Positions 81 through 39,065 of a DNA stretch of 39,406 nt are shown one piece after another; position 1 is the first letter of the stretch, and each line of letters opens with the position of its first letter. Origin of the DNA: a virus. The notes beneath the pieces are model-generated. The model searched no databases and was not told the DNA's origin. It saw only the letters and a list, made by a program, of their open reading frames with translations. A program made the translations under genes and the position numbers. The stretch lies in the IMG/VR virus record IMGVR_UViG_3300023184_000272, positions 1-39,406 of that record, one strand, 5' to 3'.

Positions 81-611
81 TTATTTAATCTTTAATTTGA
101 ATTTCTTTCCGGATGGGATTGAATATACTGCAAAGATAGGCGTTACTTGAAATTGTAAATCTCGCATTCTATTTGTATATGATTGCCACATTTGTTTTTC
201 TAAATAAGCAATTGTCATATGTGGTCTGTAATCTGTAAATTCGTTTGAGTTTGGTAGTTTGCTTAATAGATGATGTGCTTTTTCTAATCCATCACCAACT
301 GCATCCATTTTTAATACATCATAATTATCACTTTCAAAAACTGAAACATTACTTAGTTGTATATCCCCAAAATGAATCCTATCTAATAATTGTTGAACTA
401 TTTGTGGAGTTACGTTAGAATGTAATCCATATAACAAAGTGACGTGGGGTTCTGTTTCTTTACCATACTTACCACTACCATCATCGTAAATATCTTTATC
501 ATCTATAATACCGGTGAGTTGACTTTCGTTAAAATCAAAGTATAACATTACACAGCCATATTCGTAAGGGCCGTTTTTAATTTCTTTAAGTATCTTTCTT
601 AATTTAATCAC
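81..611 (-). CDS. 2H phosphoesterase (2'-5' RNA ligase / LigT-like)
   Basis: 176 aa. Two H-x-T motifs typical of the 2H phosphoesterase fold are visible: H56-V-T58 in PHVTLLYG and H131-M-T133 in PHMTIAYL, separated by about 75 residues as in this family. Members open or hydrolyse 2',3'-cyclic or 2'-5' phosphodiester bonds in RNA or oligonucleotides. In phages they can remove 2'-5' oligoadenylate-type or cyclic nucleotide signals or take part in RNA repair; which applies here cannot be told from sequence. The start overlaps the stop of the upstream gene by 4 nt, so the two are probably translationally coupled. The family call is secure; the substrate is unknown. Confidence 0.85.
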   Translation of the reverse strand: MIKLRKILKEIKNGPYEYGCVMLYFDFNESQLTGIIDDKDIYDDGSGKYGKETEPHVTLLYGLHSNVTPQIVQQLLDRIHFGDIQLSNVSVFESDNYDVLKMDAVGDGLEKAHHLLSKLPNSNEFTDYRPHMTIAYLEKQMWQSYTNRMRDLQFQVTPIFAVYSIPSGKKFKLKIK

Positions 612-4170: not shown

Positions 4171-4202
4171 CAAAAAACCCCAACTAATTAAAGTCAGGGT
4201 TT
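4171..4202 (-). terminator. Rho-independent terminator
   Basis: Minus-strand 10-bp stem with two wobble pairs (AACCCUGACU with AGUUGGGGUU), loop UUAAUU, then a U-rich tail. It ends the short unit that starts at 4310-4318 and lies just upstream of tRNA-Asn. Confidence 0.8.
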
Positions 4203-4234
4203 TCTAAAATTCTTAATATAAATCTAGCCTAACT

Positions 4235-4324: not shown

Positions 4325-5368
4325 TAAAAAAGTAATCAATCTTCAAAATACGCCACGTCAAGTCATGCTCCGGTTAATACTAGCCTCGATGAATTACTTT
4401 CTGCTATCATTATTGGAATCGAACCAATATTAACCATTATGATAAAATAAAATAGGGATGAGAATACTCCATATTGTGAACCAGCTTTAGAAAGATTATT
4501 AGTTCCTTCCGTTTCCACTACCTTTTGAGTAGTACCAATTCAATGTGGATGATTTAAGACTATCAGTCTATAAGTTGCCGATTACTCTCTACTTACTTAT
4601 TTTCTTTAAGCCTCGCAGCCTAATTAATTCTTGCGGAATTAGAAACCTTTCGATAGAATCACAGACTTCTTGCGGAAGTATCGTGGCTAAGAACAGCTCT
4701 TAACTATGTACACACCTTTCACCTGCAACTGGTAAACACTTAAGCTTAATTTTTAATTTTGAGTTTTACACCAAAGTAAAATTGAGTTTTAGTTTATAGA
4801 ATTATTCAGGTAGTGGTTTACCACTAGCTCCCCCAACTTTTGGTCGAGAGAATACTAAACTACCCGATGCAATATCCCTACTGCGTTATTTTGAGTCATC
4901 TTCATTGAGTAGTTTTGGTAAACTAGTTCAAAGGATAGTAACAGCACCACCTGTACACAGTCTTATCTTACGTCCTTTCGGATGGTTTGATGTTAAGACC
5001 ACTCTGATAATGAATACCGCAATGATGCAGAGGGATTAAGTCTACATTTCTTACTGATATTCTATGGGTTATTCTTATTGGTGTTCCCACCTCAATTAGA
5101 GTATCTATAATACCCCAATTATTCTGACTGTTCCGATATAGTGTTACCCTTTCGTACAAAGCCTAAATAATATCCCACTTGCATACTTGAGTTAGTCTCT
5201 CCTTACGGGGAAAGTAACCGCAGATGTATCACTTAATACACCCACTTTATCCTTGTTTCCAAGTTTATTTAACGACCATATGCGGCCGGTATTTACTATG
5301 TAGAACAAGTCTACTATGTAAAGATTTTAATAATTTAAAGAACTTCTATGAGTGTTACCCCATTGTTT
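4325..5368 (-). ncRNA. Very large structured noncoding RNA (candidate GOLLD/ROOL-like ornate RNA)
   Basis: About 1,040 nt without a credible gene, beginning just after the consensus promoter 5371-5402. It ends near an 8-bp AAAGUAAU/AUUACUUU stem followed by a U run (about 4327-4400). Base composition is less AT-rich than the surrounding spacers and hairpins are dense. GNRA-capped or GNRA-like hairpins include CUUG-GAAA-CAAG (about 5251), GGUG-GGAA-CACC (about 5085), UCC-GAAA-GGA (about 4978), AUC-GAAA-GGU (about 4650) and twin hairpins UUCC-GCAA-GAA at about 4632 and 4672. Others are UAGUGG-UAAA-CCACUA (about 4820) and CUUUCC/GGAGAG (about 5205). A T-arm-like minihelix lies near the 3' end. 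Giant ornate RNAs such as GOLLD and ROOL are known from phages and sit next to tRNA genes, which fits size, location and structure. Class membership is inference and needs a covariance search. Confidence 0.6.
4404..4445 (-). other. tRNA acceptor/T-arm-like minihelix within the large RNA
   Basis: A 6-bp T-arm (UAUUGG-UUCGAUU-CCAAUA) stacks on a 7-bp acceptor-like stem (UUAUCAU/AUGAUAG, one G-U) joined by only 9 nt. D and anticodon arms are absent. It resembles half of a tRNA and could be a tRNA mimic or a remnant. Confidence 0.5.
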
Positions 5369-5370
5369 TA

Positions 5371-5402
5371 TAAATATACAATAATTTTTTCAAACTACCA
5401 AA
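5371..5402 (-). promoter_or_regulatory. Two-box promoter of the large RNA
   Basis: Minus-strand TTTGGTAG, 15-nt spacer, GTATATTTA; exact consensus. Expected transcription start is about 5368. No start codon of a credible gene follows, supporting an RNA product. Confidence 0.8.
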
Positions 5403-5601: not shown

Positions 5602-5607
5602 CATTTG

Positions 5608-5680
5608 TTGCGATGGGAAGATTCGAACTTCCGACCTCTAGGTTATGAGCCTAGCGAGCTACCTCTGCTACTACATCGCG
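5608..5680 (-). tRNA. tRNA-Met(CAU), initiator-like
   Basis: Anticodon stem CUAGG/CCUAG with loop CUCAUAA, T loop UUCGAAU. Acceptor CGCGAUG against CAUCGCA leaves C1 opposite A72, the unpaired first position that marks bacterial initiator tRNAs. The anticodon stem has only part of the GGG/CCC signature (AGG/CCU), so the initiator call is tentative. Starts 5 nt after the tmRNA 3' end. Confidence 0.85.
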
Positions 5681-5684
5681 ATAT

Positions 5685-6058
5685 TGGTGGAGATGAAGGG
5701 AGTCGAACCCTTGTCTTACAAAGTAATCATAATACCAGCATGTCACACGTTTAGAATAAAGTTTTAATCTTACTAACTTTTCAAAAGAATTGAGGCTGTA
5801 TGGTTAGTACAACGGTCCACCATCAGTTTTTAGGGATTTAACTGAAAACCATTTTCACATTCTATTTAAATTCCCATGATGTGTACGGGAGAGATTAGGC
5901 TGCTACAGCGTAATCAGCACCGATGAAATCCATTAAGGAATCAAAGGTCATAGTTGACATTTCGTCAGTTATTGTTTTGTGCAGATTTAAGGAGAACTAG
6001 CACTTCTCTCCACGTGTGATACTACAATTCTCATTGTAATCAATTCCAAAGCATCCCC
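5685..6058 (-). ncRNA. ssrA: tmRNA (transfer-messenger RNA) with encoded CCA
   Basis: 374 nt. The 5' end GGGGAUG pairs with CAUCUCC at the 3' end, keeping the G3-U70 alanine identity pair, and is followed by an encoded ACCA tail. T arm AAGGG-UUCGACU-CCCUU is diagnostic. An upstream stem GGAGA/UCUCC and a UUAAAUCU segment precede the message, as in Bacteroidota tmRNAs. The tag frame ends GADYAVAA-stop at 5895, a classic C-terminal degron. By comparison with Bacteroidota tmRNAs (resume codon followed by GAA) the resume codon is placed at GAC 5966-5964, giving a 23-residue tag beginning DEMST, far longer than the usual 8-11. tmRNA with SmpB rescues stalled ribosomes and tags the product for proteolysis. 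Own promoter at 6079-6110. Confidence 0.9.
5895..5966 (-). CDS. tmRNA tag reading frame
   Basis: 24 codons including stop, from inferred resume codon GAC (5966-5964) to TAA (5897-5895). Begins DEMST, contains SLMDFIG and ends GADYAVAA. The resume position is inferred by analogy; GCA further upstream would hit a stop after five codons and is rejected. Confidence 0.6.
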   Translation of the reverse strand, partial: DEMSTMTFDSLMDFIGADYAVAA

Positions 6059-37403: not shown

Positions 37404-39065
37404 TTATAATCCGTATCTAGCTCTTAAATTGTTCCAAATATATCCTATTTCAGTTGCAGTTAATGCTCTTTGATAGAAAAAGAATGAACCTAAATTACCA
37501 GTATTATTTTGCATTAAATAAATATCAGATGTTCCAGTAGTTGCTGCTGCAGTTGTTGCTGCACTTGCTACTTCTACGTTATTATTATATATTTTTGTTG
37601 TACCCGCACCTGTTGTAACTGCAATCATATGCCATCCTGTTAGAGTTTGACCCGTTGCTGATGTGTTACCATTTGGTGTTGATGTAAACGCAATTGTAGA
37701 TGTAGTTGCATTCAATGTGTAATCAGTTCCTCTACTTAATATATTACCTGCACTACCATTTACAAAGGCTATAATAGTATATCCATTTCCAGATGTTGTA
37801 TTAAAATTTGAGTTACCAGTACCACTACTATATGCTTGCTCTTTGATACCATATTTACCACTTGCAAATGTTAATGATTTTGGAGAAGTTGCATTAAATG
37901 TTGGTGCTACTATTGCCGGATTAGAAGTTCCGCCGGTTAAGTTAAAACCAGTTGAATATCCTGCTACATCATTAAAGTTTGTAGTTGAAATTGCTGTATC
38001 ATAAGATGCTGCAAATTGAGGTTCTAAATAACATACTAAATTTGTCCAAGGAATTGGTGCAGTTGCTGCTCCTTTATTATGTGAAACGAATCCATTAGCT
38101 AAATAAGTATGTGCAGAATCTACTGTGATTGTTGCAATTTCTAATGTTTTATTTACAAATTGTACTAATTCTACTAATACATCTTCTACTAAACCAGTTG
38201 TTGGATTATATTTAACTAATTTATCACCTTCAACCACATCTTCTGCTCTTGTAAATTGATAAGTTTCAGTTAATGCATCCCATACAAAGAAAGGATGTGC
38301 GTGCGTTGATTTAATTGCACCATCATTAATAGAAACATATGAATCTGCAAATGAAAAATAAATATTACTTACTTCTGCATTTACAATTTCACCATTTGAA
38401 CCGGTTTCATTATACCACCAATACCACTCACCTTCATCATTTGCCGGAAACCATGCTGGCATATTAGTTGGTACAAATGTTTTAATCATATCACCTGCAT
38501 ATAAATCACCTGCTTTTACAGTTGAACCATCTGCTAATAAAATATCAGTATCAGTACTTACACATAATACATCTGAGTTGATTGAGTTATATGAATCTAC
38601 TGAATAAATAGTTTTTGTACTTGCTGCACCTGCTCCACTATTTCCTGTTCCGTTTGTAGTATAGGTATCATTATAATATGCAGTTAATGTTGTTGCATTA
38701 CTACCACTTAATGTTGCACCTGCTAATGCTTTTGCACTAATAGAAGTTGTTGCACCATTTGTACCAATTGTAAAATATGTACTATCGTTTACCGTCACAC
38801 TATAATTAGCTGCTTGTATTTTTACTCTATTATCAAATGCTAAACCTTGTCCGGTAAATGCAAATGTAAGGTTTTCTGATGTACTTTCTACTATATAAGT
38901 AAATGGTTGCGTTACTGCTACATTACCATATATAAATGAACTCATTGATACCGGTGTTCCTGCCAATGCGTTTGCTGCATTTAATGAAGATGATACTAAA
39001 CCACTTCTAGTTGTACCATTCCATGCTTTGTACAAATTTCCTAAACTTAAATTACTTGCTGCCAT
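37404..39065 (-). CDS. Virion fibre/decoration-like protein with embedded Hint domain and LamG domain
   Basis: 553 aa. Residues 1-167 are a Ser/Thr/Asn/Ala-rich beta region. Residues 168-330 form a Hint (intein-like) domain: C168 in CVSTDTDILLADGS, block B T254-H255...H257-P258 in STHAHPFFV, and the C-terminal block VDSAHTYLANGFVSHN ending H329-N330. The next residue is Lys331, not Cys/Ser/Thr, so canonical splicing chemistry lacks its +1 nucleophile and the domain looks like a bacterial-intein-like element. Residues about 335-553 are a LamG/concanavalin-like beta sandwich (SPKSLTFASGKYGIKE, GWHMIAVTTGAGTTKIYNNN). Likely a tail or head appendage that binds glycans. AAAAGGAA ribosome-binding site. 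Confidence 0.75.
   Translation of the reverse strand: MAASNLSLGNLYKAWNGTTRSGLVSSSLNAANALAGTPVSMSSFIYGNVAVTQPFTYIVESTSENLTFAFTGQGLAFDNRVKIQAANYSVTVNDSTYFTIGTNGATTSISAKALAGATLSGSNATTLTAYYNDTYTTNGTGNSGAGAASTKTIYSVDSYNSINSDVLCVSTDTDILLADGSTVKAGDLYAGDMIKTFVPTNMPAWFPANDEGEWYWWYNETGSNGEIVNAEVSNIYFSFADSYVSINDGAIKSTHAHPFFVWDALTETYQFTRAEDVVEGDKLVKYNPTTGLVEDVLVELVQFVNKTLEIATITVDSAHTYLANGFVSHNKGAATAPIPWTNLVCYLEPQFAASYDTAISTTNFNDVAGYSTGFNLTGGTSNPAIVAPTFNATSPKSLTFASGKYGIKEQAYSSGTGNSNFNTTSGNGYTIIAFVNGSAGNILSRGTDYTLNATTSTIAFTSTPNGNTSATGQTLTGWHMIAVTTGAGTTKIYNNNVEVASAATTAAATTGTSDIYLMQNNTGNLGSFFFYQRALTATEIGYIWNNLRARYGL

What the first reader, a model, noticed from the sequence alone, without database searches (positions are those of the whole stretch)
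4325..5368. About 1-kb noncoding RNA with its own promoter, possibly a GOLLD/ROOL-like or new giant phage RNA
A protein-free kilobase begins 3 nt after a consensus promoter and ends near a U-run stem. It is packed with local hairpins, at least six GNRA-capped, including a duplicated UUCC-GCAA-GAA hairpin (about 4632 and 4672). It sits beside a large tRNA array and a tmRNA. Giant ornate RNAs (GOLLD, ROOL) are known in phages and lie by tRNA genes, with multimeric cage structures reported. Size, place and loop content fit, but I could not align known conserved motifs, so it may be a divergent member or a new class.
Basis: partly seen in the sequence, partly recalled or inferred. Interest (0 to 1): 0.88.

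Follow-up and report, generated by a model that had tools for sequence, protein, structure and literature searches.

The report
GOLLD cage RNA with tRNA-mimic end
The kilobase without genes is a GOLLD RNA, a known giant phage RNA whose 14 copies assemble into a hollow cage, and it is followed not by the usual stop signal but by a stripped-down tRNA look-alike that probably marks where the host cuts the RNA to length, a device that turns out to be scattered through many other phage genomes.

Summary
The interval holds a real, complete GOLLD RNA on the minus strand: Rfam RF02032, 283.7 bits, E 3.5e-80. The conserved core is 5287-4455, 833 nt, the length of the cryo-EM reference GOLLD. Across 95 distinct homologues both its 5' and 3' domains show massive base-pair covariation, and three subunit-contact sites (B7, B8, B9) of the published 14-mer nanocage are kept. 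It has its own Bacteroidota-type promoter and a boxA-like antitermination motif (present in 101 of 111 homologous upstreams, 1.6% of random stretches). It is not a new giant RNA and not ROOL.

What is new lies just behind it: a 42-nt tRNA mimic (4445-4404) with acceptor stem, D-loop remnant and T-arm but no anticodon arm, with compensatory acceptor changes. Among GOLLD RNAs a tRNA, or this mimic, stands where the others have an intrinsic terminator, almost never both, so I infer RNase P processing of the GOLLD 3' end. The same kind of mimic occurs, strand-specifically, between protein genes in at least 71 other phage contigs and matches no Rfam family. Cleavage, cage formation and cargo are untested. 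The remaining 75 nt of the interval is a separate small structured RNA.

The parts
5372..5402 (-). Bacteroidota-type promoter TTTGGTAGTTTGAAAAAATTATTGTATATTT (-33/-7); expected start of transcription about 5366
   Evidence: consensus TTTG/TANNTTTG with 4-5 nt to the start site from PMC6847099; such a motif lies within 200 nt upstream of the core in 98 of 145 GOLLD loci, against 8.7% of random 200-nt stretches
5333..5343 (-). boxA-like antitermination motif GTTCTTTAAAT in the leader
   Evidence: GTTCTTTRA in 101 of 111 distinct GOLLD upstreams against 1.6% of random stretches; only copy of GTTCTTTRAAW in the contig; E. coli boxA consensus GYTCTTTAANA (PMC5725501)
5292..5322 (-). leader hairpin UUUAC-AUA-GUAGA...UCUAC-AUA-GUAAA, stem sequences vary compensatorily among homologues
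   Evidence: sequence and homologues
4868..5287 (-). GOLLD 5' (cap) domain, 420 nt
   Evidence: homologous in 158 other loci; 119 pairs, 95.5% of cells paired, 2308 two-sided cells against at most 696 in shuffles and at most 385 when slid
4455..4867 (-). GOLLD 3' (ring) domain, 413 nt, with the contact loops L20 (4674-4670) and L21a (4635-4631)
   Evidence: Rfam RF02032 1-416, 283.7 bits; covariation; contact sites
4404..4445 (-). tRNA-like minihelix without anticodon arm: acceptor stem, AAUGGUUA D-loop remnant, T-arm with UUCGAUU loop; proposed RNase P site at 4446/4445, the GOLLD 3' end
4326..4400 (-). element X: separate small structured RNA, closed by a covarying long stem and followed by U residues; 33 loci, no Rfam match
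4171..4206 (-). first strong intrinsic-terminator-like stem downstream of GOLLD on this strand
5607..5680 (-). tRNA-Met upstream; a tRNA-Met is the commonest upstream neighbour of GOLLD in related contigs, distant ones included
5685..6058 (-). phage tmRNA with its own Bacteroidota-type promoter at 6110-6080

Best explanation
5287-4455 (minus strand) is a complete GOLLD RNA of a large T4-like phage, probably of Bacteroidota. Shown: the sequence family, covariation of both domains, and retention of the nanocage contact sites. Inferred, each with its own probability: (a) it folds as the published GOLLD does and self-assembles into a closed 14-mer cage (0.85); (b) host RNA polymerase starts at about 5366 from the -33/-7 promoter (0.8), and a boxA-like leader motif recruits Nus factors so that this long untranslated RNA escapes Rho and folds while transcribed, as rRNA does (0.6); (c) its 3' end is not made by a terminator but by RNase P cutting in front of the tRNA-like minihelix 4445-4404, which keeps only what RNase P needs, a coaxial acceptor/T-arm stack of about 12 bp and a T-loop, and has lost what decoding needs (0.6). 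In relatives a tRNA-Gly, tRNA-Met or other tRNA-like element holds the same place, and most other GOLLDs use an intrinsic terminator. The cage probably encloses or sequesters a macromolecule during late infection; cargo unknown.
For: GOLLD. Both domains: 95.5% and 95.4% of cells paired, two-sided changes 2308 and 2182 against shuffle maxima of 696 and 710. Core of 833 nt (420 + 413), as in env-38 (PMC12286853). Contacts: B7 (L20 with J13/15) pair 544-615 is GC 43, CG 42, AU 9; B8 (L21a) CGCAA in 76, GTCGA in 12, the GC/CG switch reported in the paper; L21b (B9) has GC in nearly all. Promoter. boxA: 101/111 against 1.6%, single copy in the contig, a related GTTCATTGACATATTG about 400 nt behind the 16S end in two Bacteroidota genomes. 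Minihelix: 99.4% paired, covariation score 0.465 against 0.196 in shuffles (0/500) and at most 0.184 when slid; among 69 GOLLD contigs the model finds it only at GOLLD 3' ends. tRNA-like element and terminator exclude each other: 31 / 75 / 8 / 5 (tRNA-like only, terminator only, neither, both), Fisher 4e-16. RNase P cuts acceptor/T-arm model substrates (PMC11143913).
Against: No transcript, cleavage or assembly data. The Fisher test ignores kinship; only 5 independent tree pairs are available, about 3.3 opposite and 0.2 same on average, which cannot reach significance. The minihelix encodes no CCA, which helps bacterial RNase P, but none of the 19 tRNAs of this phage does either. The minihelix alone folds only slightly better than shuffles (z -1.2). 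In the window the boxA-like motif departs from the E. coli consensus at its last base.
Confidence: 0.85

Rival explanations
1. The minihelix is a decaying pseudo-tRNA left by recombination in the tRNA island, without function; the GOLLD 3' end is made elsewhere (element X or the terminator at 4206-4171, with trimming).
For: It replaces a tRNA-Gly found at the same place in close relatives; tRNA clusters of phages recombine often; element X ends in a stem and a U-run.
Against: Acceptor pairs change on both sides together at four positions; mimic and full tRNA change places several times on the tree (14 three-state against 7 two-state changes) while the element itself persists; the same element occurs in phages with no tRNA nearby.
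Confidence: 0.15
2. The minihelix stays attached and acts as a tRNA-like tail: a 3' stabiliser, an aminoacylation or EF-Tu mimic, or a handle or cargo of the cage.
For: tRNAs are reported inside the GOLLD linker, and covalently linked tRNA cargo has been proposed (PMC12286853); the D-loop GG and T-loop that form the tRNA elbow are kept.
Against: No anticodon arm or fixed identity elements; the acceptor sequence is free to change; it sits at the 3' end, not in the linker inside the cage; full tRNAs at the same place would normally be cut free.
Confidence: 0.22
3. A new class of giant phage RNA, or a ROOL RNA.
Against: Full-length GOLLD match far above the gathering score; no ROOL match at E up to 1.
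Confidence: 0.01

Closest known systems
GOLLD RNA (Rfam RF02032; env-38 structure, PMC12286853)
   Same: 3' domain by covariance model; 833-nt core; 5' domain of the same size; B7, B8 and B9 contact sites; phage, beside tRNA-Met and a tRNA array
   Different: Bacteroidota-type promoter and boxA-like leader; 3' end followed by an anticodon-less tRNA mimic instead of a terminator; no tRNA in the linker
ROOL RNA
   Same: large phage RNA near tRNA genes that forms a cage (octamer)
   Different: no sequence or structure match
RNase P minimal substrates (acceptor stem plus T-arm; PMC11143913)
   Same: acceptor/T-arm coaxial stack of about 12 bp, UUCGAUU T-loop, U before the presumed cleavage site
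   Different: natural, keeps a D-loop GG remnant, no encoded RCCA; cleavage not tested
mascRNA at the MALAT1 3' end (from general knowledge)
   Same: a tRNA-like element directly behind a long noncoding RNA; RNase P cleavage makes the RNA's 3' end
   Different: mammalian and a fuller cloverleaf; here about 42 nt with no anticodon arm; unrelated origin
pseudo-tRNA inside mycobacterial GOLLD (PMC6582537)
   Same: degenerate tRNA associated with GOLLD
   Different: lies within the RNA, not at its 3' border; no covariation reported in the passages read

Membership tests
GOLLD | Conserved 3' domain matching the RF02032 covariance model above gathering score | tested here: met
   283.7 bits against 150, model 1-416 of 416
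GOLLD | Structured, less conserved 5' domain upstream of the 3' domain | tested here: met
   420 nt, 119 pairs with strong covariation over 95 homologues
GOLLD | Same 5' fold as env-38 | tested here: inconclusive
GOLLD | Subunit-contact sites B7, B8, B9 | tested here: met
   544-615 and 543-616 covary; L21a GC/CG switch; L21b with GC
GOLLD | Found in phages or prophages near tRNA genes | tested here: met
GOLLD | Assembles into a 14-mer cage | not testable with these tools
   needs mass photometry or cryo-EM
GOLLD | Expression rises during lysis | not testable with these tools
   needs RNA from infected cells
ROOL | Match to the ROOL covariance model | tested here: not met
   no match at E up to 1
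tRNA (for the minihelix) | Cloverleaf with anticodon arm, recognised by ARAGORN or RF00005 | tested here: not met
   no call at 4404-4445
RNase P substrate (for the minihelix) | About 12 bp of stacked acceptor and T stems with a T-loop | tested here: met
RNase P substrate (for the minihelix) | Is cleaved by RNase P | not testable with these tools
   needs an enzyme assay
boxA antitermination element | Consensus GYTCTTTAANA in the leader of an untranslated RNA | tested here: inconclusive
   10 of 11 positions in the window, full match in some relatives, conserved in 101/111; Nus binding untested

The most novel reading that the evidence does not exclude
Phages use a widespread, so far undescribed RNA element, an anticodon-less tRNA mimic of about 42 nt, as punctuation in their transcripts: RNase P cuts in front of it between co-transcribed protein genes and at the 3' end of the giant GOLLD cage RNA, whose expression otherwise resembles rRNA (boxA leader, processed ends). 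GOLLD lineages swap freely between this mimic, a full tRNA and an intrinsic terminator.
Probability: 0.45. Interest if true: 0.85.

Novelty: new variant of a known kind. Interest (0 to 1): 0.62.

Why it matters
GOLLD nanocages are a recent structural surprise with no known function or biogenesis. This member and its relatives give concrete signals (promoter, boxA-like leader, exact 3' end) from which native-length RNA can be made and its expression tested in a flavobacterial phage system. The tRNA mimic would, if RNase P does cut it, be a bacterial-virus parallel to mascRNA/MALAT1 and to mitochondrial tRNA punctuation. It is common enough (68 strict cases among 127 hits of one capped scan) to be a general part of phage RNA biology that current annotation misses, because neither ARAGORN nor Rfam sees it.

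Tried and rejected
Coding region: rejected. ROOL or a new giant RNA: rejected. Naming the phage by close relatives: the only DNA match among 50,697 phage records is the uncultured 634-kb LR745206, which carries a GOLLD; the nearest isolates by tail sheath, Microcystis phage Mel-JY01 and the Flavobacterium immuto phages, have none. GOLLD in sequenced hosts: the 23 pattern hits in bacterial genomes were not confirmed by a GOLLD search, and the sequences seen beside them look like chance. Minihelix as a GOLLD-only element: first believed, then refuted by a scan without the GOLLD prefix. My first null for that scan was too lenient (21% of chimaeras passed); the strict one gives 0.6-1.2%. Host rRNA leaders to prove boxA in Bacteroidota: the 16S model found nothing in two genomes; the motif was found in the 16S-23S spacer of two others, so support is partial. 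Folding energy of the core or minihelix as evidence: weak. A scan of crAss001, phi14:2, FCL-2 and immuto for the mimic found none; Mel-JY01 has one imperfect candidate.

Full report
WHAT IS THERE. The window is a complete IMG/VR virus record of 39,406 bases coding for T4-like phage functions: tail sheath, gp19 tail tube, baseplate protein, gp32-like protein, RecA, DnaB-like helicase, ribonucleotide reductase. It has 19 tRNAs and a tmRNA. The interval 5368-4325 contains no credible gene. Rfam's GOLLD model RF02032 matches 4867-4455 on the minus strand over its whole length with 283.7 bits (gathering score 150), E 3.5e-80. The Rfam model covers only the conserved 3' domain, so the 5' half had to be tested separately.

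BOTH DOMAINS ARE REAL. Pattern scans of 2.9 million viral contigs brought in about 180 GOLLD loci; 158 of them match the window's 5' half and 177 its 3' half by BLASTN. Distant homologues align from window position 5287 on, which gives a core of 833 nt (420 + 413), the same as the cryo-EM reference env-38, residues 1-420 and 421-833 (PMC12286853). In an alignment of 95 distinct cores the RNAalifold structure has 41 helices. In the 5' domain 95.5% of cells pair, with 2308 two-sided changes (shuffle maximum 696, slid versions at most 385); in the 3' domain 95.4% and 2182 (maximum 710, slid at most 450). The structure was derived from the same alignment, which favours it on percentage paired, but the number of two-sided changes is far beyond every control.

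THE CAGE CONTACTS ARE KEPT. A coupling scan found, without being told, pair 544-615 between the loop 614-618 and the segment before the next helix (GC 43, CG 42, AU 9; neighbour 543-616 GC 91, UA 4). By position this is the L20-J13/15 kissing loop, bridge B7. The loop at 653-657 is CGCAA in 76 and GTCGA in 12 sequences: the GC/CG switch that the paper reports for L21a, bridge B8. L21b carries GC in nearly all (B9). Other long-range helices appear: 573-577 with 741-745 and 466-471 with 552-557 in the 3' domain, 775-824, and 180-183 with 489-492, which joins a loop of the 5' domain to the start of the linker (at least 93 of 95 sequences paired at every pair). I did not find the last one in the text I could read; it may be in the paper's figures.

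HOW IT IS MADE: START. The promoter 5402-5372 fits the Bacteroidota -33/-7 consensus TTTG/TANNTTTG (PMC6847099); similar motifs precede the tmRNA and other units of this contig, and the nearest sheath proteins of isolates include Flavobacterium phages. The host is therefore probably a member of Bacteroidota (inference). Between promoter and core lies GTTCTTTAAAT (5343-5333). GTTCTTTRA stands in the leader of 101 of 111 distinct GOLLD loci against 1.6% of random stretches and, as GTTCTTTRAAW, once in the whole contig. It resembles boxA, the NusB/NusE site of rRNA leaders, E. coli consensus GYTCTTTAANA (PMC5725501); some relatives match that consensus fully (L018, L006: GTTCTTTAACA). A related motif lies about 400 nt behind the 16S end in two Bacteroidota genomes. 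A boxA-like leader suits a long untranslated RNA that must escape Rho. This is inference; no Nus data exist.

HOW IT IS MADE: END. Ten nucleotides behind the core lies a 42-nt tRNA mimic, 4445-4404: an acceptor stem, AAUGGUUA (a D-loop remnant with the elbow GG), and a T-arm with UUCGAUU loop, and nothing else. It is not called by ARAGORN or by the Rfam tRNA model. Fifteen distinct versions pair in 99.4% of cells, with two-sided changes at four acceptor positions; the covariation score is 0.465 against 0.196 in shuffles (0 of 500 reach it) and at most 0.184 in slid versions. In 69 GOLLD-bearing contigs (642 kb) a covariance model of it finds it only behind GOLLD. Its 3' side reads N-C-A, like the real tRNA genes of this phage, none of which encodes CCA. 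In close relatives the same place is taken by a tRNA-Gly-like gene, in others by a tRNA-Met-like one. Of 119 tree-placed GOLLDs 31 have such a tRNA-like element and no terminator within 120 nt, 75 a terminator and no tRNA-like element, 8 neither and 5 both (Fisher 4e-16, not corrected for kinship; five independent tree pairs, about 3.3 opposite and 0.2 same). Where terminators were found behind tRNA-like elements they were mostly far off. The tree shows 7 changes between the two devices and 14 if mimic and full tRNA are counted apart. RNase P accepts acceptor/T-arm model hairpins (PMC11143913). The simplest reading is that GOLLD 3' ends are made either by termination or by RNase P, and that the mimic is a tRNA reduced to its RNase P determinants. 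This step is inferred, not shown.

THE MIMIC IS NOT CONFINED TO GOLLD. A scan without any GOLLD sequence found it mostly behind GOLLD but also elsewhere. Of 127 hits of a broader pattern, 68 have a perfect acceptor of at least 6 bp and T stem of at least 5 bp; shuffling partners gives 1.2%, that is 1.6 expected. Seventy-eight strict elements in 71 loci include only 4 inside a frame of 100 codons or more; 49 have a same-strand gene end within 60 nt upstream (6 on the opposite strand) and 37 a same-strand gene start within 60 nt downstream (6 opposite). Several contigs carry two to four (L384, L234, L239, L398, L472). In eight such contigs examined ARAGORN finds only one tRNA in all, so these are not relics of tRNA islands. 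Rfam gives no credible match. I found no description of it in the papers searched, but the library lacks most subscription journals.

THE REST OF THE INTERVAL. 4400-4326 is element X, a separate small RNA with a covarying closing stem, found in 33 loci, sometimes next to the mimic and sometimes some 300 nt further on.

VERDICT. The finding is right in substance: a GOLLD RNA with its own promoter. As such it is a new member of a known family. What lifts it is the 3' device, which makes it a variant of the known kind and points to a widespread, unannotated phage RNA element.

Noticed in passing
L384, L398, L392, L364, L394, L389, L239, L234 and about 60 further loci: Anticodon-less tRNA mimics (acceptor, AATGGTT, T-arm) between co-oriented protein genes in many phage contigs, strand-specific, with diverse perfectly paired acceptors and no Rfam match. 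Probably a general transcript-processing element.
   Followed up: partly
window 4400-4326 (-): Element X: conserved small RNA, consensus GAGGCnnnTATTAACCrGAGCATGACTTG inside a covarying long stem; 33 loci; followed by a small open frame.
   Followed up: partly
window about 5601-5528 (-): Element A behind tRNA-Met: conserved core TTGAAGCCA..TAATAAAACCGA..AAAGCCGG with a closing stem and a short internal pairing (TCAA/TTGA, ACAA/TTGT, ACAT/ATGT, ATAG/CTAT) that change compensatorily; 37 loci, no Rfam match. Candidate new structured RNA.
   Followed up: partly
window about 5470-5423 (-): Element B between two Bacteroidota-type promoters: conserved GATGAAAGATACTCGGTAT within a variable closing stem; 41 loci, some only distantly related to the window; no Rfam match.
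   Followed up: no
L007, L008, L012, L039, L058, L100, directly behind GOLLD: tRNA-Gly-like genes in which D-loop GG and T-loop UUCGA changed together (D-loop AG, T-loop GGCAGAA/GGCAGCA); others (L036, L044, L048, L052) have a hairpin inserted in the D-loop. They look freed from decoding.
   Followed up: no
L091 behind GOLLD: A further mimic with a different T-loop: GGTCGGTT...TTGAG-AGCAAGA-CTCAA-ACCGACC.
   Followed up: no
GOLLD core positions 180-183 and 489-492 (window 5108-5105 and 4799-4796): Covarying 4-bp helix between a 5'-domain hairpin loop and the start of the linker; would tie the two domains together.
   Followed up: partly
window about 4303-4235 (-): Small frame MKALTLHTLCSTPNQIWGGRDM with longer relatives behind GOLLD in other contigs (MKxLxLHT...W.G...LEDTDVG); seems cut short in the window.
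   Followed up: no
window 81-611 (-) and 37404-39065 (-): A 2'-5' RNA ligase-like protein with a weak match to the anti-CBASS protein Acb1, and a large protein with a HINT domain and a lectin-like domain.
   Followed up: no
L384 900-1950: Four to five near-identical mimics in one 800-base noncoding stretch of repetitive AACATAAC-type sequence.
   Followed up: no
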